Origin: Ischnura elegans
Lineage: Eukaryota > Arthropoda > Insecta > Odonata > Coenagrionidae
Assembly: GCF_921293095.1 (NCBI RefSeq)
Contig: NC_060258.1
Location: 4,154,001-4,218,000, forward strand
Direction of reading: 5' to 3'
Length of the DNA stretch: 64,000 nucleotides
Shown here one piece after another: positions 8,815-63,600 of this stretch. The number at the start of each line of letters is the position of its first letter. Position 1 is the first letter of the stretch. Both the position numbers and the translations under genes were made by a program. The notes under the pieces were generated by a model. That model ran no database searches and was not told where the DNA came from. It saw nothing but the letters and a program-made list of their open reading frames with translations.

Positions 8815-10072
8815 GTAAGTAGATATATTACGGATTTCAGAAATAAATACCAGAAGACAAATCAATACTGCTAAGTTGCAGCACAACTCAATTTTAATAA
8901 CTTGTGTGTTACAGTTTGCTGCTATTGATTAAAAAAATGATAATCCCTAATATTTCAATATACTTATGTGGATCTCATCAGGAGGTTGATCAGGAAATGA
9001 TTTAGATGGATATCATATTTAACCTGTAAAAATGTAATTGCTCCCTTTATGACTTTTTAACTGTTATCCTTAAGCGGACAAAAGGGGGAAATTATTTAAT
9101 TTTTAAGAAATTTTATTTTTTTAATCAAATTTACCTCTGATTGTTAACAACGCTTGATTCATGGTTGATGCTTCCTTTTTGACAAAAAAGTGGTGTGAAT
9201 TTTTAAATAGAAATGCATGAACTGTGGCCTCTTCCATGGCACACGTGATTTCCATTGCTAAGTACTTTATGAAAAATGTTTACTTATTGGTGTGAAAAGT
9301 AATATGTAGCTGCTAAAAGTAAACTCATATTTAAAATCTGGAGCAATTTAACATTAAAGGAATTATATTCCTAAAATATTTTGATAATTGTTGTTCTCTC
9401 ACGTAGAAGGATTAGGACAGCATTATTTTCTCCTCAAGTATTCTCAAAAGAAAAATCTATGCCATTTTAAATATTAACTTAAGGAACATTACGATGTGTA
9501 TAATCCATAACCACTGAACACATGTTTTTGTCTTTTAAATGGATATTTTTTAAAAGGGCATGATTTAATTTTTCTTCAGCAATTTCAAGCTTGATATGAG
9601 ATAATTCTTGATGCCTGACTTCTCTTTTTGGACAAAATTGTAGTTTATTGAAATTACCAAAAAAGACTGACTTCTGATCTACTTGCAAAGGAATGAAAGG
9701 AAAACATTATTCTCTCCTTAAGTATTCCTAAATGAAAAATTATTTTTCATTTAAAATATCAGCTTCAACAACATTACTATTTACATAATACAAAATTACT
9801 GAGCACACATTTGTCTTTTGAATGAACAAATTTTTATAGGGGATGATTTAATTTTTCATCAACAATTTCAATATAGTGATTATTATGGATGCCTGCCTTC
9901 CCTTTTCAGACATAATTGAACCAATATTGAAATTGCCAAAAGAGAATGATACCTTATTTGTGTTTAGCAACCAGCGAAAATATTAATTAAAGGGAATAGG
10001 TTTCAATCTATCAAATGGTTTTTAAAAATTAGATCTTTGAGTCCTAGATTGTAATATGATTTTCTTTTCTAG
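8815..10072 (+). other. last intron, with a tandem duplication
   Basis: This intron ends in a long pyrimidine-rich acceptor (TTTTCTTTTCTAG). It contains the 284-bp tandem duplication listed separately at 9410-9965. The remaining sequence is AT-rich and unassigned. Confidence 0.45.
9410..9965. repeat. tandem duplication, period about 284 bp
   Basis: The blocks beginning AGGACAGCATTATT (9414) and AGGAAAACATTATT (9698) align through shared landmarks: TTTAATTTTTC, CAATTTCAA, GATGCCTG and GAAATT-CC-AAA. The copies have diverged by many substitutions, so the duplication is old. Confidence 0.6.
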
Positions 10073-11868
10073 GGCTGTCAACTCCTGACCAAGTGCTGGT
10101 AGAAACAACACCAACTTCACACCTGCTGGCAGAAAGAAATGTATGGATTGACCTTAACGATGATTGTATTGGTTCATCAGCCTCAGTGACACACATTCAA
10201 TCCAAGACTGTGGCATCCCCATGTGGGGATGGAACGAATGTGATGGATAAAGATTTGAAAGAAGACATTGCTCATCATGCTGACAAGGTACTGCCTAACT
10301 CAATTCCTGATGATGGACACAGTTATATGAAACACATTCCAGCATCTAGAAACAGTGGAAATGGAGCCACAATGACTGTTGTTGGGGATAGAAGGGATGC
10401 ACCAAATATCACAGGTAGCCTTAGGTTGATCAGAGTCGGTGAAAACAGAAGAAGTGGCATTGAGGCAGAAATGGAAAACAAGAAAGAGATGAGTTATTGC
10501 TTCATCAAAAATCCTAGAAATGGTAAAAATTCAAACGAAAAGTTATATTATTGCTCCCACTGCAGATATGGGTTCAACACCAATGACGATCTGATCAAAC
10601 ACATGGGAATTCATTCTGGTACCAGCAATTTGGATCCTAATGATGAATCATCCATGGGAAAAGATGAGTCTTTCACAGTCCCCGCATCAAGAGAAGAAAG
10701 TAATGATTCTCGTGAGTCGTCCACCTCTGAGACATCGACGGGATTGAAAAGGAAAAGACGAGGGGCGATGCAAAAAGTAAATGCGCCCGTGTTAGAAATC
10801 TGTGGTGGAATTGGAGAGAGGAAAACTGCGGAACGAGTGGGAAGTTCTGATGGGGATGGGAAACCATACACGCAGAATATGTCCTCAGAGTCCACCACCC
10901 CTTGTGCGAGAATCCTCCAAAATCACGCGGTAGGAGGCGCAAAAGGAGGGCCTTTCAATTGCAGCGTCTGCAACAAGTCGTTCCCGCTGAGGAGCGGTCT
11001 TAGCAATCACATGCGTTCGCACAAAGAAAGAAAACGTTATCCGTGTACGATCTGCAGCAAGTCTTTCGCTTCGAAGTCTCGCATAACTAAACACTTGCGC
11101 ACACATACGGATGAGAAGCCTTTTTCGTGTAGTGATTGCATGAAGTCTTTCTCTTTTAAAGGCAACCTCATGAGGCATTTGCGCACCCACACAGGGGAGA
11201 AGCCTTTTTCTTGCAATTATTGCGCAAAGACTTTCACTGGAAAGTACAATCTCATTAAACACTCGCTTGTTCACACAGGCAAGAGACCGTTTACATGCGA
11301 GATTTGCAGCGAGTCTTTTGCCTCGAAGTCTAACATTACTCAACAGATGCGCAGGCACACGGCAGAGAAGCCTTTTTCATGTAGTGATTGCATGAAGTCT
11401 TTCTCTCTTAAATGCAACCTCAAGATGCATTTGCGCACCCACACGGGGGAGAAGCCCTTTTCGTGCAATTATTGCGCGAAGGCTTTCGCTAGTAAGGCGA
11501 AACTCATCCAACACTCGCGTGTACACTCAGGAGAGAAGCCTTTTTCTTGCAATTATTGTGCAAAGGCTTTCAGTAGAAAGGAGAATCTCATCCCACACTT
11601 GCGTGCACACACAGGGGAGAAGCCCTTTTCGTGCAATTATTGCTCAAAGGCTTACAATAGAAAAAAGAACCTCGTCCAACACATGCATACCCACACAGGG
11701 GAGAAGCCTTTTTCGTGCAATTATTGCGCAAAGACTTTCATTAGAAAGGACACACTCGTTGAACACTCGCGTGTACACACAGGAGAGAAGCCTTTTTCTT
11801 GCAATTATTGTGCAAAGACTTTCCCCAGAAAGGACAAACTCATCCAACACATGCATACGCACACATGA
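10073..11868 (+). CDS. multi-C2H2 zinc-finger protein, last exon
   Basis: This exon opens after acceptor TTTTCTTTTCTAG and runs to a TGA at 11866-11868. From 10093 it gives about 591 residues; the upstream exons add about 143 more. An acidic/polar linker is followed by one isolated finger (YYCSHC...H, near residue 153 counted from 10093). A basic stretch (GLKRKRRG) comes next, then eleven tandem fingers with TGEKPF linkers (about residue 289 to the end). Sequence-specific DNA binding and nuclear location are expected for the family; no target can be read. Fingers 3-5 and 6-8 are a duplicated three-finger unit (11041-11292 and 11293-11544). In the finger at about 11290-11355 the first zinc-binding His is replaced by Gln. 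The array ends abruptly at HTHT, and fossil fingers continue beyond the stop. It is paralogous to the minus-strand gene at 34307-35895. Confidence 0.85.
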
Positions 11869-34306: not shown

Positions 34307-35895
34307 TCAGGCCACCCTCTTGTGCGTACCCATATGCTTGTTGAGGCTGCTCCTCTGAGAGAAAGACCTATTGCAGACACTACAGGAATAAGGCTTATCC
34401 CCAGTGTGAATACGAATGTGCTCGGTAAGGACATCACTGCGACTGAATGATTTACAGCATATTTTACATGAATAACGCCTCTCTCCTGTGTGGGTACGCA
34501 TGTGTTTGGTGAGGTTGCTCCTCACAGAGAATGACTTATTGCAGACACTACAGGAATAAGGCTTATCCTCAGTGTGAATACGGATGTGCTCGGTAAGGGC
34601 ATAACTAAGACTGAATGATTTACAGCATATTTTACATGAATAAGACCTCTCTCCTGTGTGGGTACGGATATGGGTGTTGAGGTGGCCTGTCATAGAGAAA
34701 GACTTATTGCAGATGCTGCATGTATAAGGTTTCTCTCCTGTGTGTGTATGCCTGTGGTTGTTGAGGCTGCTCCTGTGAGAGAAAGACTTATTGCATACAC
34801 TACAGGAATAAGGCTTATCCCCAGTGTGAATACGGATGTGCTCGGTAAGGGAATAACTGCGACTGAATGATTTACAGCATATTTTACATGAATAATTCTT
34901 CTCCCCCGTGTGGGTACGGATATGGGTGTTGAGGTGGCCACTCAGAGAGAAAGACTTATTGCAGATGCTGCATGTATAAAGTTTCTCTCCTGTGTGTGTA
35001 CGCTTGTGGTTGTTGAGGCTGCTCCTCTGAGAGAATGACTTATTGCAGACGCTACAGGAATAATTCTTCTCCCCTGTGTGTACACGCATGTGTCTGCTGA
35101 GAGTAGAAGACTTAGCGAAACACTTATAGCACACACTACAGGAATAAGGCCTCCCTCTTGCACTGGAACACTTTCCCTTTTTGACGTCTCTAGTGCAAGA
35201 GGAGGAATTTAAGGAATCACTTTCTACACATGTGTCAGCTCCTACAGCAAACCTTCTCCCTTTTCTATCCATTCCTTTCTCCAGGGTCCCTCTGGATACT
35301 TCCTTTAGAGGCCCATTTCCTTCATGCCTCAGCACTTGTTTTCCACTGTTTGTCCCTTTTATATCTAGCACCATGGATGACTCATCATCCACGACTAAAT
35401 TGCTGGCACCAAAATGAGTTTCAAGGTGTTTTTTAAGCTCACTTTTGGTGCTGAATCCACCTGTGCAGTGGTAGCAATTATATGAAGTTTCGTTTGACAT
35501 TTGTCCCTTTGCAGCATTTTTCGCCGCACAATTACTAAACTCATCTTTGTTCCCCATGCCTGCCTCTGCACAACTCCTCTTCCTACTAGTTCTGATCATC
35601 CTGAGGGCATTAGGGATAATTGGTGCTTCACAACCACTTCCACCCCTCACCTCACCCATTGCGACTCTGCCTCCACTGATTTTGGATGCCTGCTTGTCCA
35701 TCATATAGAATTCAGCAAGATGTTGACTTATCAGCAAGAACAGCTCCACATTTTTCCATGTCTTCATTAATCACATTCCTTCATTCCCCTGCATGAGATG
35801 CTCCATTCGCAGAATTAATGACTGTCAGTGAGGCTGAGGAAGGAATAGTCACCACTTAGATGTTTCCCCAAACTTCCTTTCACCAGCTGGAATCC
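34307..35895 (-). CDS. multi-C2H2 zinc-finger protein, last exon
   Basis: An acceptor CTCTTTTCTAG on the minus strand places the exon start at 35895. The open frame begins at ATG 35767 and runs 486 codons to a TGA at 34307-34309. It has one isolated finger (residues ~96-120, YNCYHC...H), a linker with basic patches, then ten tandem fingers (residue ~208 to end). Fingers repeat in a three-unit pattern (SVCNKSF, SICNKSF, KICCKSF), as in the plus-strand paralogue. Shared features with that gene are the acceptor context, an LR-IR stretch, the NK-E(M/F)S-C block, the isolated finger and the ASNL/DESSM stretch. Sequence-specific DNA binding is expected. Between 35895 and 35767 all three frames are closed, so the 5' part is untranslated or has decayed. 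Upstream exons were not found. Confidence 0.75.
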
Positions 35896-45550: not shown

Positions 45551-47537
45551 CATCATCATCACTGGTCAACAATCCTAGGATTGGTTTGACGCAGCTCTCC
45601 ACTCAGTTCTCCTATCAGCTAATCTTTTCACTCCTACGTATTTCTTCTCTTTCACATCTCTCTTTACTTGTTCCATATATTTTGTTCGAGGTCTTCCTTT
45701 TCCATTCTTGCCTTCCACCTGTCCTTCGACGATTGTCTTCATCAGGCCATCATGTCTCAAGATGTGGCCTATAAGGTTGTTCCGTCTTCTTATTAAGGTT
45801 TTCATGAGGCTTCTCTTCTCTCCTACCCTTCTTAGGACTTCCTCGTTACTAACTCGGTCGATCCATTTGATTTTCATCATTCTTCTGTAGCACCACATTT
45901 CAAAGGCCTCTATCCTTGCTTTCTCCGCTGCGGTCATTGTCCATGCCTCACTTCCGTATAGGAGCATACTCCAGATGTAGGTTCTTATAAATTGTTTCTT
46001 CACATCCATATTTAAGTTTCCCGCTGTAAGCAGGTCTCTCTTTTGGTGGAATGCTCTCTTCGCCTGGGCTATTCTGCTGATAATTTCTTTCTTGCTTCTC
46101 CCGTCACTAGTTATCTTGCTTCCCAAATAACAGAATTCATCCACTTCTATCAGTTTTTGCCTCCCTATTTTAATGTTGGTCTTGACTTCTTCTCTTCTGC
46201 TGCATACTAAGATCTTGGTTTTCTTCGTGCTTATTTTCAGTTGATATCTACTCATTACCCTACCCATATTAACCAGAATATTTTTCAAATCCTTCTCTGT
46301 TTCTGCTATAACGGCTATGTCATCGACAAATCTTAGCATGCTTATTTTTTCTCCATGGATATTCACTCCCAATCCCTTTTCTTTGATTTCCTTAATGGCT
46401 TTTTCAATGTAAACGTTGAAAATTACGGGCGACAATGTACAGCCTTGTCGCACTCCTTTCTTAATTCTTGCTTCTTCACAGCTGGGCCCTGATTTTATCA
46501 CGGCTATTTGGTTTTTGTATAAACTGTGGATGATTCTTCTGTCATTATAAAGAACCCCGATTTCCTTTAGGATTCCAAGCATTATGCTCCAATCCACGTT
46601 ATCAAATGCTTTCTCTAAGTCCACAAACGCAACGAATGTTGGCTTGTTCTTTTCCATTCTCTTTTCTATGAGCAGTCTTAGGGCCAATATTGCTTCCCTT
46701 GTGCCTTTGTTTTTCCTGAATCCAAATTGGTCCTCATCCAAGTACTCTTCTGCTTTTCGTTCTATTCTTCTATAGATGATCCTTGTCAGTATCTTTGATG
46801 CATGTGTAGTAAGGCTTATGGTCCTAAAATCTTCGCACTTCTCCGCTCGTTTCTTCTTAGGAATAGGGATTATAATGTTCCTCTCGAAATCCTTTGGTAT
46901 CTCACCTGTCGTATACATTTCACTAATGATTTTGTATAGCTGGCTCAACGTCTTCTCTCCTGAATTTTTGATTAGTTCTGCAGGAATGTCATCAATGCCA
47001 GACGCTTTATTTATCCTGAGGTCTCTTACAGCCGCATCAAATTCCGATCTTAAAATTGGGGCTCCCATGTCATCGTCATCCACTTCCCTCTCGTTTTCGA
47101 TAGCATTCGTTCTGAGGCAACTTCCTTTGTACAAATCTTCAAGATATTCCTTCCATCTCTTCCCTTTTTCTTCGTTTTCAATCAATAGTTCTCCGTTTTT
47201 GTCCCTAAGGGTATTACATCTTACGCCCCTTTCCTTAAAGTGGTTCCTCACTATCCTATAAGCGTCCTCTACTTTTCCATGTTTAAGATTGTTTTGCACG
47301 TCTTCGCATATGCTTTTCATCCACGTTTCTCTAGCCTTCCGCGCTTTACGACATATTTCGTTCCTTATCCTCTTGTAACGATTCTGTCCTTCCTCTGTTT
47401 TCGCAGCCTTGTATTTTCTTCTTCTTTCAATGAGATCTAATACTTCCTGCGTGATCCATGGTTTTTTCAAAACGACTCTTCTTTTACCAAGAACTTCCTC
47501 AGCTGCCGCCTGCAGACCACTTCTAATGGTTTTCCAA
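45551..47537 (-). mobile_element. RTE-like LINE, 5'-truncated, nearly intact reverse transcriptase
   Basis: An 8-bp duplication CTCTCTGT flanks it (45543-45550 and 47538-47545). The other arm keeps the empty site at about 58830-58850. The frame is open from the truncated 5' end to the stop at 45575 (more than 640 residues, continuous upstream of 47470). RT motifs in order are IIIPIPKKK, DEDQFGFRKNKGTREA, AFVDLEKAFDNVDW, KKGVRQGCTLSPVIFN, RFVDDIAVIAE and YLGSKITSDG, followed by the RTE-type C-terminal ESW-like and W(C)xRRxxxxxW region. The endonuclease is missing. The catalytic box is FVDD instead of the usual FADD, though both Asp remain. The 3' UTR is only about 24 nt and ends in TGATGATGATG, as in RTE elements. 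It cannot move alone but is young. Confidence 0.85.
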
Positions 47538-47545
47538 CTCTCTGT

Positions 47546-48353
47546 AAAGTGGTAATTTTATAATTTATTTCTTAAAGCCTTCTCAAGGGATCACACTTTC
47601 CCCGTGCTTGGGGTAAGTGAGTTCAATGGACAATGTGCAATATATTTCCACATTACATGGCACATGGGCTAAGTGCGATTTGCCCAGATATTCAGCTTTA
47701 CATTGCTTTTGAAGCTACCAACTTATATTCAACCATTCTTGAAAAATTCAATTACCATTTCCAATACCCTATCCAAGGTATTGGAGTTTTTGTCTATTTT
47801 TTGAAAGAAATTGATTGATTATTGTAATAATCATACCTACCATAATTACATTATATTTTTATCTACGAATAACTTATAGTGAATTTACTTTAAACAATAT
47901 ATCTACAATTTGAATAATCAGAACAACAATAAATCAATTATATTCATATCAGGATTGATTTCAATGGCAGGAATTCCTCTAATTGTGGTAATTAATTTAT
48001 ACTAAGATCTTATGTTAAGTAAACAAGTAGCCTACAAAGCCTCAATTAAAAGTAGTAATCTTTTAGGTCTTAGTTTATATTAACAACTTTAGAATTGCAG
48101 TCTAATATCATTCCTTTTGACTATAAGCCCAATGACTTCCAATAGCTTCCCCAAGGTATTGGAAGTGGATTTTTTGCATCTTCAGGTTAATTAGATGTTA
48201 CACAAATGAATTTTAGCGTAAATGGTTTTACTAATGATGGTGGCAGTATTTGAATTGCACAAATTTATTTACATGTGTTTTATAAATAGCTTATGTGTAG
48301 AAGCTGAATAATTAATGATAAAAATAGCATCAAGTTTGCAAGATATCTAAGTA
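47546..48353 (+). repeat. duplicated segment between LINE and Helitron-like copy
   Basis: Inverted counterpart at about 58010-58835. A short frame MCNIFPHYMAHGL... (47633-47818) is open in both arms. However, the arms differ there by six replacement and three silent changes, so it shows no protein constraint and is not called a gene. Confidence 0.75.
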
Positions 48354-49089
48354 TCCTATCTATATACAGCCCTTGTGGTGACTGACTCACTCATGGATAC
48401 AAATTCCCGACCACTTCTAGAAGTGCTGCAGAGCTGAAATTTGGCACGCGTGCGGGGAACCCGAAATGATTCGGAGGAAAAATCCGAAAACCGGAAGTTT
48501 CCGCCACGTGTCGTCGCTAGGACGACAAAATGGCCGAAATCGCGCTTTTTCCGGGGACCGTCTTTCGGTTTTAATTATACTGCGCGCGAACCGTGCGTGC
48601 CACTTGGATGTTTAATGCATTTCTTGAAAGCTTATAAACGTGGTCACGTAATAATGTAATGTTATTAGTTTATTTTTAAGAAATTGCCAGCCAAAATGGC
48701 GTCCAAAAATTGGCTTTTCGAAAAATATTTCATACCTTCCGCTCCCCTCGACTTAATTTAAGGTGTAAGATAACGAAAATGATTATTATATATGCTAATA
48801 ACATCGTCTACGAAATGTAGGTAACAATTTTCTTTCGTCGGCCTTGGTTACTCAGAAAAAAATTAAAATAATCCGAAAATCACCGAAAATAAGGATTTCC
48901 GAAAGATTAACACAGGATTTTTTCAATTTTAACCTGACCGATTTCTTTCAAACTTTGTAGTTACATGCAACTATTCATTATCTTTTAGAAAACATAAGCA
49001 TTTAATGAATGGTGTTATGAATTTAACCGCGAAAAAATAAAAATGGCGGGCACTACCAACTTTTTTCGGGGTTTGGTTTGCTTTTTATT

Positions 49090-50095
49090 GCACTACTTTC
49101 GAAATATGGATGTCATAGGGCACACTTCCGTTAGATATGACAGTAAACGAATATGACCATATAATATCGTCATTTTTAAACCCCCCAAAACCCCCTAAAA
49201 ATTTAAAATTTGCATATAAGTAGCCTTTTCGGGTATTTTTCGTCACAATTTCGCCGCTTTCCCAAGCTTTACCAGTCATCGCTACGGAATTGATGTGGTC
49301 GATTGATGACCCCTGGCAGTAACAACCTATAAACCCCCGGTAAACCCACATACACCCCCAAAGAATAAATTTTTTCACATAAGTCTACCTTTATGGATCT
49401 TTTCGTGACTATTCCTATGCCCCCAACGGAATTTATGTGAACGGATGGTGACCGCAGGGAGTACACATATAAACCCCCGGTATCCCCCTGAAATTCCCCC
49501 AAATGTAAAATGTGCCATTAAGTCTCCTATTTGGGAACTTCTCGCGAGCATTACGCAGCACTACCCGTCCCCTCTGAGCTCTAGATCCGGAATATTTGGT
49601 GAGGGCGAGCCACTGTAAACCATACGGGAAAAAAGACCAGAAAACCCCTGGAACCTCCTGGAACAGCCGAAAAAAATAAAAATATTTCAAAGTCGCCTTT
49701 CGGAGTAGTTTTCGTCACAATTTAACCGTTGCCCCTACCACCTATTAAAACCCCCGATAAACCCGTGAAACTCTCAAAATATTTCTAATAAATCGCCTCT
49801 CCATGTAAAAGAATCGTCAGACCACTGTTTTGGACCCCTAAGACTTACCGGCACCGAATTTATGAGAACGATTTGTGACCACTGGCTTAACTCAAATATA
49901 AAACCCCCGGTATTCCGTTGGGACCCCCCGCAAAAAAATGAAAAACTTGCCATTAAGTCTTCTTCTATGGGTACTTGCCGCCACTATTACTCCGCATTGC
50001 ACTACCCTTTACAATCATCGCTACGTGATCACTGTGGACGATTGGTGACCGCATGCATAACACATTAAAACCCCCGAATCCCCCTGGGCCCCCTC
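49090..50095 (+). repeat. internal tandem repeat of the Helitron-like element
   Basis: About five or six diverged monomers of roughly 165-180 bp. Landmarks are GAATT-ATGTG-(A)CGATTGGTGACC, AAACCCCCGGTA, AAATTTGCCATTAAGTC and TTTTCGTCAC-ATT. The same stretch occurs in copies 2 and 3 at +4814 and +7335. Confidence 0.7.
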
Positions 50096-50154
50096 TCGGT
50101 GGAGAAGAGCATTAATGAGCACAAAGCGGAGCAGCTGCAGGGGGGCTCCTCAAC

Positions 50155-50660
50155 CCCAAGGCGGCGAAGCCGCCCCACAACGAGGAACGGCGAAGCCGTT
50201 CCGAGGAGTAACTGGCATATGCGAGGGGGAGCTTCAGTAACCCTCGGGCGGCGAAGCCGCCCCGATGTTCAAGTGGCGCAGCCGCTGTGGACTCCCCCCC
50301 TCTCTGGGCGGCGAACCCGCCCCTCAAACGAATAACGGTAAAACAGTTCCGAAATGCCCTCGCCCTCTGGGCGGCCTTGGCGACCCCAGACGAGAAACTT
50401 CGAAGACGTTCCGAGTATTAAGCGGGAGAGCCCCGGGGGGGCACACTCAACCCCGGGGCGGCAAAGCCGCCCTTCAGCGAGGAACGGCGAAGCCGTTCCG
50501 AGGAATGAGTGGGGCGACTCCCCACCCCCTGGCCGGCGAAGCCGGCCCCTAGCTGAGGTGAGATTATTCGAACTTCGAAAGTCGTCGAACAACCACAAAT
50601 GTTGACGGCGAAGCCGGAACCGGGGTTTTTAAGGGGCGGAGCCCCTTAACGAGCGCGCGG
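50155..50660 (+). repeat. array of GC-rich mini-hairpins
   Basis: At least nine short perfect or near-perfect palindromes, most with the core CGGC-GAA-GCCG. Examples are at 50160-50174, 50184-50202, 50246-50263, 50307-50324 (one mismatch), 50457-50474, 50482-50500, 50532-50548 and AAGGGGCGGAGCCCCTT at 50631-50647. They are spaced about 25-130 bp apart up to the 3' end. Equivalent arrays lie at 54969-55474 and 57490-57995. Confidence 0.85.
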
Positions 50661-50671
50661 AGCGCAGCGAG

Positions 50672-51118
50672 TAAATTAGTATAAAGAAGGAAAGAAAATC
50701 CTGGATACGGCCTTGCTTGTGCCCCCCTCTCCCAGGAAGAAATCCTTATCCAGTAAATTCATCCTATGGTGCACAGAATTTAAATTATTATGTCTGAAAT
50801 AATCCATCTCTCACTTACCATGGCACTTTTTGGGACGATATCTGCAGTGTTCAGTGGGAATGTCTGTCACAGTTACGAATATTAGGTTGAAAGAATTATT
50901 TGTGGGTGACATTGATTTCGTTTTTAAGAAGAAAAGGATTTCATGAGGCTCTCAACCGGTTGCGGGTTCATTAATGTCTTTTCTACCGTGTGTTGCCATC
51001 CTTGATAAACAATGGAGGCCTAACACCTAGTACCACAAGCTATGGTAAAATTGTTCTAGGAATATGCATTGTGATATGCACTGTCAGCCAGCAATGGTTT
51101 AATTTTTTGCAGCAGTCC
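50672..51118 (+). repeat. inner segment of the left duplication arm
   Basis: The inverted counterparts are 55486-55688 and 52954-53167, split in the right arm by Helitron-like copy 2. It contains the left-arm version of a candidate membrane-protein exon, here disrupted by an indel and stop (about 50943-51117). Confidence 0.8.
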
Positions 51119-51121
51119 ATT

Positions 51122-51343
51122 GGCCCATTGTATACGTAGTCTTCTCATGGTAAGATACACACTTAAAGCCCTGAGTCTAAACTAATCTTTGCTTGATTGG
51201 GCTGTTATAAGCTAGGGTGTCAATGAGCATTTATGTATTTTATGTCTATCTGTTGTAATGTCATTTTTAGGTGATATTTAAAAGTGTGCTTTTTATAGCC
51301 CCTTTTTATGGTATACGTATCCCTATTTTATATCGGACAAGCT
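51122..51343 (+). repeat. 222-bp direct repeat, copy 2
   Basis: Same orientation as 43712-43933. It ends exactly where MITE copy E begins, so the junction marks a rearrangement or an insertion into MITE sequence. Confidence 0.85.
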
Positions 51344-51953
51344 TTCGTTACCCACCATTAGTGTATTCATAATGCACAAATTATTTGGTTTTTGAAATAC
51401 CGGTTCAGACGAATGGCAAGGGTAAAATTTTATCCTCATGTAAAAAAGGCCGGATTGGGGCCCATGCGATTCCACTCCACCTGACGTCACAGGGACCTAG
51501 TTTCTACACGAGAGGATAGGAGTTATCCATTGTCTGAGATTACCAATGCATGAATGAGGCGCAGAGCTCACAGAAACATGTCTTACTAATCATCTATTAA
51601 AACTGGCTAAAGTCGGAAAGTTTTCATCGTTTGATAAGGTATTAATAAACCTTTTTTTAAGCCAAGTGCTACCAGCCAGCGAGGTACTCAGCTACTCTCT
51701 AGCATCCTGCGTCCTATAGGCACTCAAGAGCCTCGATCAAGATCACCTAACAAGGTGGGAGGGGGAACCAGAAATAATCCCTTCATTACTTATTACGCGT
51801 TGCGTTTTCGCGCGCTTGAAATTTTTCACTTTTCATTTAATCGCGAAAAATAGATATCGTGATTTAAAAATCTAAAAGCGTGAAATACGTACTCCAGGAG
51901 CAATAATCTTTCGATTTAGGCAATAAAAAAATAATAGGAAACCACCCTATTTC
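51344..51953 (+). mobile_element. GGGTAGTTTCC MITE copy E, 5'-truncated
   Basis: It begins inside the family at TTCGTTACCCACCATTAG and runs to the intact end ATAATAGGAAACCACCC. Non-coding. It lies in the spacer between the duplication arms. Confidence 0.75.
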
Positions 51954-52950
51954 CAGTAAGCCCTTATATCCATTTTATTTATTATTTATCATGTCTTTAT
52001 AAATAATATAGAAAAAATGTGTATAATTTTTATCCATTACCCAATTTTTACTGTACTACTATCAAACTTTTTTTATTTTCTAAGCAGAAATGGATGGATG
52101 CATTTGTTTTTGAAAAACCCGTAGCATAAAGAAACATTATGCCTTCATTCAAATTTGACAAGTGTTTAATGCTCTGCCAATAGGGGACCTAACCAATCTT
52201 AAGTAATGATACTCCATTTGCAATGCAATTCACAGTTTTTACATTTTATACACTTCTTCAAGCCATAAAATAATGAAATTAGGCAATGAATGAAAACATT
52301 TGTATTAAAATGATTATATAACTATACGTAACAACTAAATAGAGTTTTATACTCGTACTTTATTTATAACAGGAGGTATTCAATTTTCCTTCTGGAGCTT
52401 GTTGGAGAATAAATATTCTTAACTCTCTTGATGCATATGATTAGCACATGTTTCAACGGAAGTGGTTGCCAGCTTCCCCTGTTCTACTATTATCTCATAA
52501 AGGTCCTCCTCTCTGAGATTGAGAATGAGATATGGATGATAGAGTATTTTCAGTACTATTAGCAAAGAGACAACATAAAAGGGCCCAATTCCATTGCATA
52601 CAAGCATGACCGATGTTGTCATTTGAGGAGCATTGTAAACGGTTCACAGAAACGTCTGCAGCGTGGAAATGACTGCAGAGTGTTCCATTAACTCATGATA
52701 TTTGTAACAGAATAAACTCCAAATTACCTGTGCACACATTTTGAGTTGTTGATGGACAGAATTTAAACAAATCTAACATGAAATTCTATTCTACAGTGAA
52801 GCTTGATGCTACTTGAACACTTAATTACCCAAATGCTATATTTTCCTTCCTATCAACAAATCAGGACATGCTCACGAAAAAATTAGCATCATTGAGTTTT
52901 AGTTCCTTTTACAAATGAAATACACATGAGTTTCAATGAGAAGAAATTAC
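51954..52950. other. spacer of the inverted duplication, unassigned
   Basis: AT-rich, no recognised coding or repeat content. If the exon at 52951-53120 is real, this is its intron (donor GTAATT reading leftwards). Confidence 0.3.
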
Positions 52951-53120
52951 CTTGACTGCTGCAAATGAAACCATTGCTGGCTGACAGTGCAGATCACAAT
53001 GCATATTCCTAGAACAATTTTACCAAAGCTCATGGTACAAGGTGCTAGGTCTCCATTGTTTATCAAGGATGACAACACGCGAGAGACATTGATGAACTCG
53101 CAGCCGGATGAGAGCCTCAT
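52951..53120 (-). CDS. candidate exon with a membrane segment (unidentified)
   Basis: On the minus strand an ATG at 53120 opens 56 codons ending at a consensus-like donor (TCAAG|GTAATT). The peptide starts MRLSSGCEFINVSRV and contains a hydrophobic segment GKIVLGICIVICTVS near residues 33-47. The duplicate in the left arm has an indel that closes the frame, so only one copy could work. Helitron-like copy 2 sits about 50 bp upstream. No family was recognised and a chance frame is quite possible. Confidence 0.2.
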
Positions 53121-53167
53121 GAAATCCTTTTCTTCTTAAAAACGAAATCAGTGTCATCCACTAATAA

Positions 53168-55485
53168 TCCTATCTATATACAGCCCTTGTGGTGACTGAC
53201 TCACTCATGGATACAAATTCCCGACCACTTCTAGAAGTGCTGCAGAGCTGAAATTTGGCACGCGTGCGGGGAACCCGAAATGATTCGGAGGAAAAATCCG
53301 AAAACCGGAAGTTTCCGCCACGTGTCGTCGCTAGGACGACAAAATGGCCGAAATCGCGCTTTTTCCGGGGACCGTCTTTCGGTTTTAATTATACTGCGCG
53401 CGAACCGTGCGTGCCACTTGGATGTTTAATGCATTTCTTGAAAGCTTATAAACGTGGTCACGTAATAATGTAATGTTATTAGTTTATTTTTAAGAAATTG
53501 CCAGCCAAAATGGCGTCCAAAAATTGGCTTTTCGAAAAATATTTCATACCTTCCGCTCCCCTCGACTTAATTTAAGGTGTAAGATAACGAAAATGATTAT
53601 TATATATGCTAATAACATCGTCTACGAAATGTAGGTAACAATTTTCTTTCGTCGGCCTTGGTTACTCAGAAAAAAATTAAAATAATCCGAAAATCACCGA
53701 AAATAAGGATTTCCGAAAGATTAACACAGGATTTTTTCAATTTTAACCTGACCGATTTCTTTCAAACTTTGTAGTTACATGCAACTATTCATTATCTTTT
53801 AGAAAACATAAGCATTTAATGAATGGTGTTATGAATTTAACCGCGAAAAAATAAAAATGGCGGGCACTACCAACTTTTTTCGGGGTTTGGTTTGCTTTTT
53901 ATTGCACTACTTTCGAAATATGGATGTCATAGGGCACACTTCCGTTAGATATGACAGTAAACGAATATGACCATATAATATCGTCATTTTTAAACCCCCC
54001 AAAACCCCCTAAAAATTTAAAATTTGCATATAAGTAGCCTTTTCGGGTATTTTTCGTCACAATTTCGCCGCTTTCCCAAGCTTTACCAGTCATCGCTACG
54101 GAATTGATGTGGTCGATTGATGACCCCTGGCAGTAACAACCTATAAACCCCCGGTAAACCCACATACACCCCCAAAGAATAAATTTTTTCACATAAGTCT
54201 ACCTTTATGGATCTTTTCGTGACTATTCCTATGCCCCCAACGGAATTTATGTGAACGGATGGTGACCGCAGGGAGTACACATATAAACCCCCGGTATCCC
54301 CCTGAAATTCCCCCAAATGTAAAATGTGCCATTAAGTCTCCTATTTGGGAACTTCTCGCGAGCATTACGCAGCACTACCCGTCCCCTCTGAGCTCTAGAT
54401 CCGGAATATTTGGTGAGGGCGAGCCACTGTAAACCATACGGGAAAAAAGACCAGAAAACCCCTGGAACCTCCTGGAACAGCCGAAAAAAATAAAAATATT
54501 TCAAAGTCGCCTTTCGGAGTAGTTTTCGTCACAATTTAACCGTTGCCCCTACCACCTATTAAAACCCCCGATAAACCCGTGAAACTCTCAAAATATTTCT
54601 AATAAATCGCCTCTCCATGTAAAAGAATCGTCAGACCACTGTTTTGGACCCCTAAGACTTACCGGCACCGAATTTATGAGAACGATTTGTGACCACTGGC
54701 TTAACTCAAATATAAAACCCCCGGTATTCCGTTGGGACCCCCCGCAAAAAAATGAAAAACTTGCCATTAAGTCTTCTTCTATGGGTACTTGCCGCCACTA
54801 TTACTCCGCATTGCACTACCCTTTACAATCATCGCTACGTGATCACTGTGGACGATTGGTGACCGCATGCATAACACATTAAAACCCCCGAATCCCCCTG
54901 GGCCCCCTCTCGGTGGAGAAGAGCATTAATGAGCACAAAGCGGAGCAGCTGCAGGGGGGCTCCTCAACCCCAAGGCGGCGAAGCCGCCCCACAACGAGGA
55001 ACGGCGAAGCCGTTCCGAGGAGTAACTGGCATATGCGAGGGGGAGCTTCAGTAACCCTCGGGCGGCGAAGCCGCCCCGATGTTCAAGTGGCGCAGCCGCT
55101 GTGGACTCCCCCCCTCTCTGGGCGGCGAACCCGCCCCTCAAACGAATAACGGTAAAACAGTTCCGAAATGCCCTCGCCCTCTGGGCGGCCTTGGCGACCC
55201 CAGACGAGAAACTTCGAAGACGTTCCGAGTATTAAGCGGGAGAGCCCCGGGGGGGCACACTCAACCCCGGGGCGGCAAAGCCGCCCTTCAGCGAGGAACG
55301 GCGAAGCCGTTCCGAGGAATGAGTGGGGCGACTCCCCACCCCCTGGCCGGCGAAGCCGGCCCCTAGCTGAGGTGAGATTATTCGAACTTCGAAAGTCGTC
55401 GAACAACCACAAATGTTGACGGCGAAGCCGGAACCGGGGTTTTTAAGGGGCGGAGCCCCTTAACGAGCGCGCGGAGCGCAGCGAG
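53168..55485 (+). mobile_element. Helitron-like non-autonomous element, copy 2 (2,318 bp)
   Basis: Same length and, as far as I can read, same sequence as copy 1. The flanks ACTAATAA and TTCTTTCAA rejoin to match the uninterrupted left arm (AATAATTCTTT on the minus strand near 50905), again A|T with no duplication. It splits the duplicated segment within a short open stretch. Confidence 0.7.
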
Positions 55486-55688
55486 TTCTTTCAATCTAAT
55501 ATTCATAACTGTAACAGACATTCCCACTGAACACTGCAGATATCGTCCCAAAAAGTGCCATGGTAAGTGAAAGATTCATTATTTCAGACATTATAATTTA
55601 GCACCATAGGATGAATTTACTGGATAAGGATTTCTTTCTGGGGGGGGGCATAAGCAAGGCCGTATCCAGGATTTTCTTTCCTTCTTTA
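55486..55688 (-). repeat. duplicated segment between Helitron-like copies 2 and 3
   Basis: Reverse complement of about 50682-50905 of the left arm, with scattered differences including a longer run of G (ten, against CCCCCC in the left arm). Confidence 0.8.
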
Positions 55689-58006
55689 TCCTATCTATAT
55701 ACAGCCCTTGTGGTGACTGACTCACTCATGGATACAAATTCCCGACCACTTCTAGAAGTGCTGCAGAGCTGAAATTTGGCACGCGTGCGGGGAACCCGAA
55801 ATGATTCGGAGGAAAAATCCGAAAACCGGAAGTTTCCGCCACGTGTCGTCGCTAGGACGACAAAATGGCCGAAATCGCGCTTTTTCCGGGGACCGTCTTT
55901 CGGTTTTAATTATACTGCGCGCGAACCGTGCGTGCCACTTGGATGTTTAATGCATTTCTTGAAAGCTTATAAACGTGGTCACGTAATAATGTAATGTTAT
56001 TAGTTTATTTTTAAGAAATTGCCAGCCAAAATGGCGTCCAAAAATTGGCTTTTCGAAAAATATTTCATACCTTCCGCTCCCCTCGACTTAATTTAAGGTG
56101 TAAGATAACGAAAATGATTATTATATATGCTAATAACATCGTCTACGAAATGTAGGTAACAATTTTCTTTCGTCGGCCTTGGTTACTCAGAAAAAAATTA
56201 AAATAATCCGAAAATCACCGAAAATAAGGATTTCCGAAAGATTAACACAGGATTTTTTCAATTTTAACCTGACCGATTTCTTTCAAACTTTGTAGTTACA
56301 TGCAACTATTCATTATCTTTTAGAAAACATAAGCATTTAATGAATGGTGTTATGAATTTAACCGCGAAAAAATAAAAATGGCGGGCACTACCAACTTTTT
56401 TCGGGGTTTGGTTTGCTTTTTATTGCACTACTTTCGAAATATGGATGTCATAGGGCACACTTCCGTTAGATATGACAGTAAACGAATATGACCATATAAT
56501 ATCGTCATTTTTAAACCCCCCAAAACCCCCTAAAAATTTAAAATTTGCATATAAGTAGCCTTTTCGGGTATTTTTCGTCACAATTTCGCCGCTTTCCCAA
56601 GCTTTACCAGTCATCGCTACGGAATTGATGTGGTCGATTGATGACCCCTGGCAGTAACAACCTATAAACCCCCGGTAAACCCACATACACCCCCAAAGAA
56701 TAAATTTTTTCACATAAGTCTACCTTTATGGATCTTTTCGTGACTATTCCTATGCCCCCAACGGAATTTATGTGAACGGATGGTGACCGCAGGGAGTACA
56801 CATATAAACCCCCGGTATCCCCCTGAAATTCCCCCAAATGTAAAATGTGCCATTAAGTCTCCTATTTGGGAACTTCTCGCGAGCATTACGCAGCACTACC
56901 CGTCCCCTCTGAGCTCTAGATCCGGAATATTTGGTGAGGGCGAGCCACTGTAAACCATACGGGAAAAAAGACCAGAAAACCCCTGGAACCTCCTGGAACA
57001 GCCGAAAAAAATAAAAATATTTCAAAGTCGCCTTTCGGAGTAGTTTTCGTCACAATTTAACCGTTGCCCCTACCACCTATTAAAACCCCCGATAAACCCG
57101 TGAAACTCTCAAAATATTTCTAATAAATCGCCTCTCCATGTAAAAGAATCGTCAGACCACTGTTTTGGACCCCTAAGACTTACCGGCACCGAATTTATGA
57201 GAACGATTTGTGACCACTGGCTTAACTCAAATATAAAACCCCCGGTATTCCGTTGGGACCCCCCGCAAAAAAATGAAAAACTTGCCATTAAGTCTTCTTC
57301 TATGGGTACTTGCCGCCACTATTACTCCGCATTGCACTACCCTTTACAATCATCGCTACGTGATCACTGTGGACGATTGGTGACCGCATGCATAACACAT
57401 TAAAACCCCCGAATCCCCCTGGGCCCCCTCTCGGTGGAGAAGAGCATTAATGAGCACAAAGCGGAGCAGCTGCAGGGGGGCTCCTCAACCCCAAGGCGGC
57501 GAAGCCGCCCCACAACGAGGAACGGCGAAGCCGTTCCGAGGAGTAACTGGCATATGCGAGGGGGAGCTTCAGTAACCCTCGGGCGGCGAAGCCGCCCCGA
57601 TGTTCAAGTGGCGCAGCCGCTGTGGACTCCCCCCCTCTCTGGGCGGCGAACCCGCCCCTCAAACGAATAACGGTAAAACAGTTCCGAAATGCCCTCGCCC
57701 TCTGGGCGGCCTTGGCGACCCCAGACGAGAAACTTCGAAGACGTTCCGAGTATTAAGCGGGAGAGCCCCGGGGGGGCACACTCAACCCCGGGGCGGCAAA
57801 GCCGCCCTTCAGCGAGGAACGGCGAAGCCGTTCCGAGGAATGAGTGGGGCGACTCCCCACCCCCTGGCCGGCGAAGCCGGCCCCTAGCTGAGGTGAGATT
57901 ATTCGAACTTCGAAAGTCGTCGAACAACCACAAATGTTGACGGCGAAGCCGGAACCGGGGTTTTTAAGGGGCGGAGCCCCTTAACGAGCGCGCGGAGCGC
58001 AGCGAG
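55689..58006 (+). mobile_element. Helitron-like non-autonomous element, copy 3 (2,318 bp)
   Basis: Identical in length and apparent sequence to copies 1 and 2. The flanks CTTCTTTA and TCCTAATTTATAC rejoin to match the empty left arm (CTTCTTTA|TACTAATTTA on its minus strand). The insertion point is A|T without duplication, 10 bp from the paralogous position used by copy 1. Confidence 0.7.
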
Positions 58007-59077
58007 TCCTAATTTATACATAGATATCTTCCATTAAAAAAAAATTGATGCTATTTTTATCATTAACTATTCAGCTTCTACACATAAGCTATTTGTAACA
58101 CACACGTAAATTAATGTATGCAATTCGAATACTGCCACCATCATTAGTAAAACCAATGTCACTAAAATTCCTTCGTGTAACATCTAATTAACCAGAAGAT
58201 GCAAAAAAGTCACTTCCAATACCTTGGGGAAGCTATTTGAAGTCATTGGGTTTATAGTCGAGAGAAATGATATTAGACTGCAATTCTAAAGTTGTTTATA
58301 TAAACTAAGACCTAACAGATTATTACTTTTAATTGAGGCTTTGAAGGCTACTTGTTTACTTAAGATAAGATCTTAATATAAATTAATTACCACAATTAGA
58401 GGAATTCCTGCTATTGAAATCAATCCTGATATGAATATAATTGATTTATTGTTGTTCTGATTTATTCAAACTGTAGATATATTGTTTATAGTAAATGCAC
58501 TATAAGTTATTCGTAGATAAAAATATAATGTAATTATGGTTGGTATGATTATTGCAATAATCAATCAAGTTCTTTCAAATAATAGACAAAAACTCCTATA
58601 CCCTGGATAAGGTATTGGAAGTGGTAATTGAATTTTTCAAGAATGGTTGAATATAAGTTGGTACCTTCAAAAGCAATGTAAAGCTGAATATCTGGGCAAA
58701 TCGCACTTAGCCCATGTTCCATGTAATGTTGAAATATATTGCACATCGGCCGTGGAACTCACTTACCCCAAGCACGGGGAAAGTTTGATCCCTTAAGAAG
58801 GCTTTAAGATATAAATTATAAAATTACCACTTTACAGAGAGAGGAATGTAAATCCAAAACTCTTTTTGGTTATTAATGCATACACTTTACAACAATTCTG
58901 AGAATTTTAACAAGCCTAGAAAAATATCCTGAAGTAGTTTAAAGTTGATGTATGCTATCTAGGGTCAGTGAACAGGCTACCACAGCCAGTTTTAATAGGT
59001 GATTGTTAAGACATGTTTCCCTGAGCTCTGTGCCTCTTGCATGCATTGGTAACCTCAGCACTTACCACACCTTAATA
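58007..59077 (-). repeat. outer segment of the right duplication arm
   Basis: Reverse complement of 45308-45550 plus 47546-48353, with the LINE missing. Small frames here mirror those of the left arm and show no constraint. Confidence 0.8.
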
Positions 59078-60606: not shown

Positions 60607-63600
60607 ATGGCTACTAATACTGCGCCAGCAATTGAAAAATTATCGGGCATGAATGACTATAACTCGTGGGCCTCTTCAATGGAGATGTACCTTGTGCATG
60701 AAGAATTGTAGGATTATGTTGCCGGGGTTAAAATACCAGAGAAAGACTATTCCGCGAAACTTGATAAGAAATCTCTGTCAAAAATAGTACTTATGATATG
60801 TCCAGAGCTGTATTCGTACACGAGGAAGGCAAAAACCACCAAAGAAGCAAGGGATTCGCTTCGAAATACTTTTGCACCTTCTGACGCGAGTGGTAAGAGA
60901 CTTCTTCTGAAGAAATTATGCATGTTAAAGCTCCAAGACTACCCAGATATGGAGGCGTATGTTGGTGGTGTCATGTCGGTGGTTCATAAGTTGTCAGATA
61001 TGAACTACGACACTGACGATGAGCTAATTGCCTACGTGCTCATTAACGGTCTTGGTGAGTCGTATGATGCTCTTTCAACGGCCCTTGACAACTGCGGGAA
61101 GACCCTGTTATCAGCATTCGTCAAGTCAAGGCTATTGGCAGAGGATGCTAGGCGAGGAGAAAATAAGGCGGAGGCAGCAGCCTTAGCAGTTAAGAACCAC
61201 GGGAAGCATCAGTACAGCCGATCCGAGCCCGCGCAGATGCAGAGGAGAACAACGAATTCCAGGAAATACAAGTGCAACAAGTGCCAAAGATTTGGGAACA
61301 AGGGTTCCGAATGCCGTACCATCGTGAGGAGCCAGCCTTCCCGGGACTATAAAGAGAAGGTTTCAGCTTTCCAGACAGCGATGGGCGTATCATCAAGAAA
61401 AATCGGTTGGTATTTGGACTCTGGTTGTACTGAACATATGTCAAACCAACGACATCTTCTGAAGAAATTTATTCCCAGAGAAGGATTAACTGTAAGTGTT
61501 GCAAATGATAATACCTTAGATTGTAAGGGAATTGGTATGTCAAATGCTCATATTGATGATGGTGCTATTACAGTTAATAATGTGTTGCTGGTGCCTGGTC
61601 TCTCAGCTAATTTATTGTCAATATCCCAAATGGCTAAGAAAGTCTTAATTCTTGTATTTTCTGAAAAGGGATGTGATATCTATCATAAAAACAATGTATC
61701 TATATGTGGCAGAGTCAGTGGAACTGATTCACTAGTGGAGGGTTTATACAAATTAAATGAAAAGCTTCCTATGAAAAATTTTAATGTTAACCATGTAGAA
61801 TCTGTTAAAGGTAATGCTTCAGCTAAGTTGTGGCACAGGAGACTTGGTCACATGAGTCCAGAAAGAATGAAGCAGTTGTCCAAGATAGTGGATGGCTATG
61901 ATTTTACGAGTGGTATCCAGATTCCATGTATAAGCTGTTGTAAAGGGAAACAGGCAAGGAAACCCTTTCATTCTCAAGGTAGCAGATCAAGTGCTCTTTT
62001 GGAATTGATTCATAGCGATGTTTGCGGACCAATGGAGGTAAAATCAGTTAATGGTGCTCGATTTATGCTAACGTTCATTGATGACTATTCACGCAAAATA
62101 TTTGCTTATTTTTTGAAAAGCAAAGATGAAGTCACTCAAGTTTTTATAAAATTTAAGGCCAGAGTTGAAACAGAAACTGGTCGAAAAATAAAGACATTGC
62201 CATCTGACAATGGAGGTGAATATGTCAATAAGAATTTAAAAGATTTCTTGACTTCAAATGGAATCATGCATGTTCTCACAGTTCCCTATTCACCTGAACT
62301 TAATGGAGTTGCTGAGCGTGCTAATAGATCAATTTGTGAAATTGCAAGAACCATGCTACATGATACTGAATGTCCCAAGTATTTGTGGGCAGAAGCTTGC
62401 AATACTGCAGTCTTCATAAAGAATAGGTCCCCTCATGCTGCCCTCACTAATATTACTCCTGAAGAGCTATGGTCTGGTAGAAGGCCAAACATTCAAAATT
62501 TTAGTATTTGGGTGTAAGGCAATGGTTCATATACTAGATGTTAAGAGAAAGAAATGGGATGTAAAGAGTGAGCAATATAGATTTGTAGGTTATGCTGATA
62601 TCTCTGGCTGCTACAGGCTGATGAATAGCAATAATGACGTTATTGTTGCCAGAGACGTTATCTTTGACGAAAATAATGAACAAAGTGATGATGTGTCTGA
62701 TAACTCTAATTTTGTGCCCGTAATGGAATTGTTACACCATAATACTAAAGGGGAAATGGGAGCTGAAATGTCTTCAGAGGGAGACACACTTTCTGAAAGG
62801 AGGTATCCCTTGAGAGAGAGAAAATCAAAGGTCTTCCCTGATTTTGTTACTTACAATGTTCAGGATTTGAATCTGTTAACTGATCCACTGTCCTCAAGAG
62901 AAGCCCTCTCTAGACCAGATGGAGACAAATGGCATGCGGCCATGCAAGATGATTTAAAGTCCCTAGCTGAAAATGGTGCATGGTCTATTGTTCCTAGATC
63001 AGAGGGAGTAAAGGTAGTACCTTGTAAATGGGTTTTCAAATTGAAGAAGGGAATAAATGTGAACCCTGATCGATATAAAGCTCGATTAGTTGCGAAGGGG
63101 TTTATGCAAGGTATCAATTATGAGGAAACTTATGCACCTGTAGTTCGTGTTGAAACATTGAGACTATTAATTGGGAGAGCAGTAGAATTATCTTTGCAGA
63201 TAGATCATCTTGATGTCAAAACTGCTTTTTTCAACGGGAAGTTAAATGAAACTGTATACATGGAATTGACTGATGGTGTGAAATGCAATGAATCCACAAA
63301 TAGTGTGGCACACTTGCACAAAGCTTTGTATGGTCGGAAGCAATCTTCCAGGGTATGGAATGAAACTATTCATAATGTTCTGATTGAGCTAGGTTTTGTT
63401 CAGTCTAGGCACGAAGCTTGTGTTTATTTTAAGAAAGATGGTACTAGTATTTTAATTGTTGCATTATATGTTGATGATTTGTTATTGTTTCACAATGATA
63501 AAAAGGAAACAGATGTCATTAAAGAATAATTAATGAAGAAATTTAAAATGCAGGATTTGGGCAGAGCAAAAATATGCATTGGCATGAGAATTTCTCAGAA

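What the first reader, a model, noticed from the sequence alone, without database searches (positions are those of the whole stretch)
48354..58006. Three apparently identical 2,318-bp Helitron-like insertions with natural empty sites
Copies at 48354-50671, 53168-55485 and 55689-58006 have the same length and show no difference I could find. Each lies in one arm of an older inverted duplication whose partner arm is uninterrupted at that point. All three joins resolve to insertion exactly between A and T with no target duplication and a 5' TC. That is rolling-circle (Helitron) behaviour. The 3' end is GCGAG rather than the canonical CTRR, so this may be a divergent or undescribed terminus class.
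Basis: partly seen in the sequence, partly recalled or inferred. Interest (0 to 1): 0.88.

Follow-up and report, generated by a model that had tools for sequence, protein, structure and literature searches.

The report
Damselfly Helitrons with unusual CGAG tails
Three identical copies of a rolling-circle jumping gene sit in a damselfly chromosome beside natural uninterrupted copies of their landing sites; the family joins host DNA the standard Helitron way but ends in CGAG behind a run of hairpins of a kind known to be very stable, a variant tail that its likely driving enzyme gene shares.

Summary
Confirmed and extended. The three 2,318-bp copies are identical; each sits between A and T without target duplication, and the partner arm of an inverted duplication (91.5% identical) keeps each site unbroken. 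Its genome holds 1,004 matches to the 5' end (reversed control 71). In 40 sampled exact matches the left neighbour is A (23) or GAG (17; 16 of these end a recognisable element, 1 does not). Eleven of 11 free 3' ends are followed by T. So CGAG is a real 3' terminus class, and many copies are joined head-to-tail, as rolling-circle transposition predicts. RepHel genes (HUH-Y2 plus Pif1, related to Helraiser) are followed by the same CGAG end and the same kind of joint in 4 of 4 cases where the end was reached. I therefore call this a non-autonomous Helitron with a variant 3' terminus, not a new transposon type. Unusual: the CGAG end; GNA-loop mini-hairpins all on one strand (11 versus 0), often followed by CGAG, one apparently used as an alternative end; and three identical copies within 10 kb, found nowhere else in one search. 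Not settled: the RepHel element's 5' end, whether Repbase has this terminus, why insertions cluster.

The parts
48354..50671 (+). Copy 1, non-autonomous Helitron (family A), 2,318 bp, inserted A48353|T50672
   Evidence: identity, flanks; empty site in other arm
53168..55485 (+). Copy 2, identical; A53167|T55486
55689..58006 (+). Copy 3, identical; A55688|T58007
48354..48371 (+). 5' terminus TCCTATCTATATACAGCC of copy 1 (shared by most A-family copies seen)
50126..50668 (+). Stretch holding all 11 GCGNAGC (GNA-loop) motifs of copy 1; 0 on the other strand
50629..50649 (+). Main 3' subterminal hairpin TTAAGGGGCGGAGCCCCTTAA (9-bp stem, GGA loop)
50668..50671 (+). 3' terminal CGAG in place of CTRR
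47538..51117 (+). Part of arm A of the older inverted duplication (interrupted by copy 1); holds the unbroken sites of copy 2 (A50895|T50896) and copy 3 (A50681|T50682)
52954..58841 (-). Part of arm B (interrupted by copies 2 and 3); holds the unbroken site of copy 1 (A58016|T58017)

Best explanation
The three inserts are recent copies of a non-autonomous Helitron of Ischnura elegans. SHOWN: insertion exactly at A|T without duplication, a 5' TC, a shared 3' hairpin + CGAG end, precise head-to-tail CGAG|TC joints, and RepHel genes followed by the same kind of CGAG end and joined to A-family elements (2 cases) or to other TC starts (2 cases). INFERRED: a RepHel transposase (HUH-Y2 nuclease + Pif1-type helicase) nicks the top strand at the 5' TC, peels it off while host synthesis refills the donor, pauses at a GNA-loop hairpin, cuts after CGAG, and joins 3' end to 5' end into a circle, or runs on to make head-to-tail multimers. 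The circle or multimer is then inserted between A and T. CGAG takes the place of CTRR. The array of strand-specific GNA mini-hairpins, often followed by CGAG, acts as a set of redundant stop signals. The three window copies came from one founder that inserted locally at least twice more.
For: Identity and empty sites. Left neighbour of 40 sampled 5' ends: A in 23, GAG in 17, others 0 (40 of the 100 places listed, all exact matches). Of the 17, 15 show the family hairpin + CGAG end, 1 (L078) an internal-type hairpin + CGAG, 1 (L060) unrecognised sequence ending CGAG. In the loci plus the window, 5' ends outside joints follow A in 13 of 14 and free 3' ends are followed by T in 11 of 11 (weak matches set aside, see full report). 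15 direct CGAG|TC joints in 8 of those 13 loci. RepHel: 119 Helitron_like_N matches, pieces counted apart; an open frame of 1,880 residues with Helitron_like_N, PIF1 and Pif1_2B, aligned to Helraiser 7lcc at E 6.6e-157 with PHAHI and KYLFKY aligned; CGAG|TC joint after the RepHel stretch in C13, C15, C3, C5. Terminal hairpin: 96.7% of cells paired, against 30-66% for slid versions. GCGNAGC 8-26 on + and 0 on - in all 20 elements listed, which are related.
Against: The 5' end of the RepHel element was not found: C3 was read 15.8 kb upstream of Rep. The link to RepHel therefore rests on the 3' end and shared arrays, and the C13 and C15 cases are 95.7% identical copies of one arrangement. Two of six group-3 RepHel stretches (C7, C14) stopped before the end. 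One stretch each of three other RepHel groups showed no such end; one of those, L037, matches Helraiser better (E 4.6e-211), and its own ends are unknown. Two 5' ends (L060, L012 position 832) follow GAG in sequence where no known element was recognised. Covariation in the terminal hairpin is thin: the number of pairs with double changes (2) is reached by 213 of 500 shuffles, while cells with double changes and the covariation score are reached by 2 of 500. ViennaRNA DNA parameters do not favour the + strand consistently. No activity was tested.
Confidence: 0.92

Rival explanations
1. Helentron/Helitron2-type element (T|T insertion, subterminal inverted repeats, endonuclease-bearing RepHel) rather than a canonical Helitron.
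For: The RepHel partner has an N-terminal herpes-tegument-like (VTD) domain; PMC9741609 (passages) places the VTD-bearing Helitrons it found in the Helentron subclass.
Against: Insertion is A|T, not T|T. The 1,880-residue frame shows no endonuclease domain, nor do the precomputed domain lists of P0001-P0003, three I. elegans relatives. Of four inverted pairs of 14 bases or more found in the element, none joins the two ends (shorter repeats were not looked for). Helraiser is its best match in the PDB.
Confidence: 0.05
2. The three copies are one insertion that was duplicated or homogenised: segmental duplication or gene conversion inside the inverted repeat.
For: All three lie within homologous arms and are identical, and copies 2 and 3 are only 203 bp apart.
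Against: Three different target points, each with an unbroken partner; copies 1 and 3 are 10 bp apart in homologous position and opposite relative to the arms; the adjoining arms stay about 8.5% diverged. Conversion would have to stop exactly at the element ends each time.
Confidence: 0.04
3. Head-to-tail arrays come from unequal crossing-over of singly inserted copies, not from rolling-circle multimers or insertion of circles.
For: The two A copies of the A-B-A array in L015 are identical to three decimals, and gaps between neighbouring 5' ends cluster at about 2,167-2,246 bp, as unequal crossing-over could also give.
Against: Exact CGAG|TC joints between different families (A next to B, RepHel next to A) cannot start by crossing-over between flanked single insertions, which would keep host DNA in the joint. 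Crossing-over may expand arrays later.
Confidence: 0.1

Closest known systems
Canonical animal Helitrons, e.g. Helibat/Helraiser (PMC4778049 and PMC5876387; passages seen)
   Same: 5' TC, A|T target without duplication, subterminal 3' hairpin, RepHel with HUH-Y2 and Pif1-like helicase, head-to-tail joints; [quoted passage not shown]
   Different: 3' CGAG instead of CTAG/CTRR; several GNA-loop hairpins instead of one; partner RepHel has a tegument-like domain
Hel1 Helitrons of Lepidoptera and other insects (PMC6544945; passages seen)
   Same: A|T insertion, TC start, 3' hairpin, insect hosts, another departure from CTRR (CTRY)
   Different: In C. suppressalis consensus lengths of 162-257 bp; CTRY, not CGAG; no array of GNA hairpins mentioned in the passages seen
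Non-canonical Helitrons of Fusarium (Helitron2-like; PMC5148889; passages seen)
   Same: Non-CTRR 3' ends, circles, occasional tandem copies
   Different: Asymmetric terminal inverted repeats; FoHeli1/2 insert next to TNAT and end in ATTTT, the other group ends in CTCCTGT
Tandem Helitrons of plant centromeres (Xiong et al. 2016; known only as cited in PMC5148889 and PMC5876387, not read)
   Same: Tandem Helitrons linked to rolling-circle amplification
   Different: PMC5148889 describes them as truncated copies in centromeres; here full-length elements and mixed families in small arrays at many places

Membership tests
Helitron (canonical, Helitron1) | Insertion between A and T without target duplication | tested here: met
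   3 natural empty sites; A| in 23 of 40 sampled, the other 17 being GAG|; T after 11 of 11 free 3' ends
Helitron (canonical, Helitron1) | 5' TC | tested here: met
   one search sampled exact matches to a pattern that begins with TC, so it does not test this
Helitron (canonical, Helitron1) | 3' CTRR | tested here: not met
   ends in CGAG; none of 7 CTRR in the last part of the element is followed by T
Helitron (canonical, Helitron1) | Hairpin near the 3' end | tested here: met
   9-bp stem ending 22 bases before the 3' end in the window copies; 96.7% of cells paired in 10 distinct ends. Distance given in PMC13286980 is 10-15 bp (passage)
Helitron (superfamily) | Autonomous partner encoding HUH-Y2 Rep and Pif1-like helicase with the same ends | tested here: inconclusive
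   RepHel present and same kind of 3' end in 4 of 4 cases reached, 2 of 6 not reached; 5' end not found
Helitron (superfamily) | Rolling-circle footprints (precise head-to-tail joints) | tested here: met
   15 joints in 8 of 13 loci; 15 of 40 sampled 5' ends follow a family hairpin + CGAG end
Helentron / Helitron2 | T|T-type insertion | tested here: not met
   A|T
Helentron / Helitron2 | Subterminal or asymmetric inverted repeats at the two ends | tested here: inconclusive
   None of 14 bases or more joins the ends; shorter ones not looked for
Helentron | Endonuclease domain C-terminal to the helicase | tested here: not met
   Pfam scan of the L036 frame; domain lists of P0001-P0003; other copies not scanned
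MITE / cut-and-paste DNA transposon | Terminal inverted repeats and target duplication | tested here: not met

The most novel reading that the evidence does not exclude
A Helitron lineage in which termination is modular: every unit 'GNA mini-hairpin + CGAG' on the transferred strand is a usable stop, so elements carry arrays of redundant terminators, may end at different modules, and readily run on into head-to-tail multimers of mixed families. A second part is that new copies prefer sites near the donor, perhaps single-stranded DNA exposed in an inverted repeat, which would explain three identical copies within 10 kb.
Probability: 0.3. Interest if true: 0.72.

Novelty: new variant of a known kind. 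Interest (0 to 1): 0.56.

Why it matters
Helitron finders that rely on the 3' CTRR would miss a family with about a thousand 5'-end matches, A|T insertion and a CGAG end. The natural set (single inserts with empty sites, exact joints, one apparent alternative end at an internal module) makes it directly testable how a RepHel enzyme chooses its stop. It also suggests a link between the extraordinarily stable GNA-loop DNA hairpins and eukaryotic rolling-circle transposition. In the library searched, one paper holds both 'Ischnura elegans' and 'Helitron' (listing only: an oyster lncRNA paper), and three hold both 'Helitron' and 'GCGAAGC'; in the one of these I looked into, the motif occurs in bacterial REP sequences (passages), and the other two were seen as a listing only.

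Tried and rejected
Viral contigs: a 5' sub-terminal pattern and a 3' pattern gave 0. The 5' 18-mer gave one match (L001), rejected by eye because the 1,144 bases around it show none of the other features. The RepHel protein gave no relative there: 16 stretches matched a pattern, none confirmed. Phage records: no DNA match. DNA folding energies do not separate the strands in the 8 elements tried (largest gap B, -167.1 against -155.4), so the strand argument rests on motif counts and the published GNA rule (PMC4686876, passages). One stretch each of RepHel groups 1, 2 and 4 (L038, L037, L035) showed no family ends. Attempts to find the RepHel 5' end failed. A genome-wide count of ATCC... never came back; the 40-place sample stands in for it. 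The notebook entries that give 11 bp between copies 1 and 3 and count 19 elements are wrong; it is 10 bp and 20 elements.

Full report
What was checked. The three copies are letter-for-letter identical over 2,318 bases and on the same strand. With the inserts left out, the two arms of the inverted duplication align over 1,271 columns with 1,163 identical. Each insertion point is unbroken in the partner arm, always between A and T. Copies 1 and 3 sit 10 bp apart in homologous position but in opposite orientation relative to the arms, so they are separate events. The longest frame listed inside the element is 109 residues (not searched).

Where it is. The window is C13:4154001-4218000 of a 1.72-Gb assembly. 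Three proteins found with the RepHel query lie on contigs whose lengths equal those of C14, C4 and C5, and are named as Ischnura elegans proteins (against contig lengths). The host is therefore I. elegans by inference.

The family. A DNA search listed 51 matches, of which only the three window copies are full-length at 100%; the next is 96% over positions 1-1907 (17 of 2,225 candidates were scored, so counts are lower bounds). The 5' 18-mer has 1,004 matches at up to 2 mismatches against 71 for the reversed control. Of the 100 places listed, all exact matches on C1 to C3, 51 have another within 10 kb (uniform placing: mean 0.53, largest 4 in 200 trials), and adjacent places within 10 kb are on the same strand in 30 of 31 pairs. 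These counts include array neighbours.

Ends. I scanned the 13 loci and the window for both ends. Set aside were three weak 5' matches (window -, L010 258, L019 2998) and four 3' matches that are weak or internal modules (window 5573, L013 1291, L014 3534, L021 3385). 5' ends not in a joint are preceded by A in 13 of 14; in one of these (L019) the A belongs to a doubled 5' end, and the exception is L012 position 832, preceded by GAG in unrecognised sequence. Free 3' ends are followed by T in 11 of 11. Fifteen joints in 8 of the 13 loci run directly from CGAG into a TC start; L013 and L014 are near-identical copies of each other. I then took 40 of the 100 listed places: 31 on C1 (all not seen before) and 9 near the end of the list on C3. 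The left neighbour is A in 23 (one, L083, again a doubled 5' end) and GAG in 17. Fifteen of the 17 are hairpin + CGAG family ends, three of them (L073-L075) from one array. One (L060) is unrecognised, with no match to the reference elements 4.5 kb upstream, and one (L078) is an internal-type module. In L078 a B-family element begins after A, runs 2,581 bases and stops at GGAACGGCGAAGCCGTTCCGAG, directly joined to an A-family element, whereas the B copy in L015 is 3,246 bases with the usual end. A deletion between modules could also explain that single case.

Hairpins. Copy 1 has 11 GCGNAGC motifs on the + strand and none on the other; 500 dinucleotide shuffles give a mean of 0.29 and a maximum of 3, and the 57,046 bases of the window outside the copies hold 5. 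All 20 elements listed show 8 to 26 against 0, but they are related, and modules may multiply by duplication, so these are not independent. In 21 sequences, perfect hairpins with a stem of at least 6 and a 3-base loop have GNA loops in 122 of 143 cases; by distinct stem and loop it is 13 of 24, with none of the mirror type TNC. The C7 and C14 pieces, cut before the end, have none. In window 1-48353 the same search finds 25 hairpins, 2 GNA and 2 TNC. CGAG follows within 12 bases in 75 of the 122. GNA-loop DNA mini-hairpins are reported as extraordinarily stable, with GCGAAGC at Tm 78 C (PMC4686876, passages). In Helraiser only the top strand of the joint is cut (PMC5876387, passages) and the hairpin acts as terminator (PMC4778049, passages). 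The GNA loops here lie on the corresponding strand. That they act as stops is an inference. On 10 distinct 3' ends the terminal stem pairs in 96.7% of cells (shuffles 93.7%, reached by 23 of 500); double changes occur at 2 of 9 pairs, a number that 213 of 500 shuffles reach, in 5 cells, which 2 of 500 reach.

The partner enzyme. Helitron_like_N has 119 matches in the genome, pieces counted apart. One of the 115-bit group (L036) has an open frame of 1,880 residues, stop to stop, with a herpes-tegument-like domain, Helitron_like_N and Pif1 helicase. It aligns to Helraiser (7lcc) over residues 518-1858 at E 6.6e-157; the 168-bit group's L037 matches better (E 4.6e-211). In C13 and C15 (95.7% identical to each other there) and in C3 and C5 the RepHel stretch is followed by a hairpin + CGAG end joined directly to a TC start: an A-family element in C13 and C15, other starts in C3 and C5. 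In C7 and C14 the stretch taken stopped short. An end like that of the C3 RepHel (CTACAGCGAG) precedes A-family 5' ends in L051, L067, L072, L084 and L088, though non-autonomous elements may carry it too. The 5' end of the RepHel element was not found in 15.8 kb upstream of the C3 Rep domain. Partnership is therefore likely, not proven.

How it works and what is new. The anatomy is that of a Helitron moved by a RepHel enzyme through top-strand peeling, circle or multimer formation and A|T insertion. It fails one listed feature of canonical Helitrons, CTRR; departures are known (CTRY, PMC6544945; Helitron2-type ends, PMC5148889). Tandem Helitrons are also known (PMC5148889; PMC5876387). I saw no report of the CGAG end with A|T insertion, the strand-specific GNA hairpin array, or such a local triplet in the listings or in the passages I saw; these were keyword searches of one open library. 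Repbase was not available, so prior description there cannot be excluded.

Noticed in passing
L036:2730-8369 (- strand): RepHel frame with an N-terminal herpes-tegument-like (VTD) domain but no endonuclease domain; PMC9741609 (passages) describes the VTD-bearing Helitrons it found as endonuclease-bearing Helentrons.
   Followed up: partly
L036 RepHel: Closest named relatives outside the damselfly are leafhopper, sharpshooter and psyllid proteins, mostly about 69-73% identity (one psyllid genus 61-63%), then thrips (mostly 56-60%) and Lepidoptera (about 48-52%): a candidate for horizontal transfer, not tested.
   Followed up: no
L091 end (C1:70929541) and L012:832: Two 5' ends preceded by GAG in unrecognised DNA with no match to the reference elements 4.5-4.8 kb upstream; in L012 a GCGAAGC starts 30 bases before the joint. 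Possibly new 3' ends made by read-through of an unknown element.
   Followed up: partly
L010:7254-4927 (- strand): A copy is cut after 131 bases by another copy preceded by A, then the array goes on head-to-tail: a self-insertion inside an array.
   Followed up: no
C3:112068605/112068649 and 112074255/112074299; L019:2973-3017: Doubled 5' ends 44 bp apart at two places 5.6 kb apart.
   Followed up: no
window 47538-48337 and 58041-58841: Both arms hold a mitochondrial-looking stretch: Rfam tRNA match at 48065-48130 (- strand, 34.1 bits; ARAGORN found none), and the neighbourhood reads like the end of ND2 (my reading, not tested); perhaps an old nuclear mitochondrial insert.
   Followed up: no
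window 45575-47557 (- strand): 660-residue reverse-transcriptase-like frame of non-LTR type (label recalled, not searched) inside arm A; arm B is continuous at that point.
   Followed up: no
window 60712-63529 (+ strand): Two overlapping frames that read like a copia-type gag-integrase-RT split by a frame change (label recalled, not searched).
   Followed up: no
window 10060-11868 and 34307-35770: Two frames that read like zinc-finger arrays with many C2H2 repeats (label recalled, not searched).
   Followed up: no
C13:4917074, 4982617, 5022581, 5085137: Four RepHel matches with equal scores and one TAG each, within 170 kb on the window's own contig: a second sign of local amplification or duplication.
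   Followed up: no
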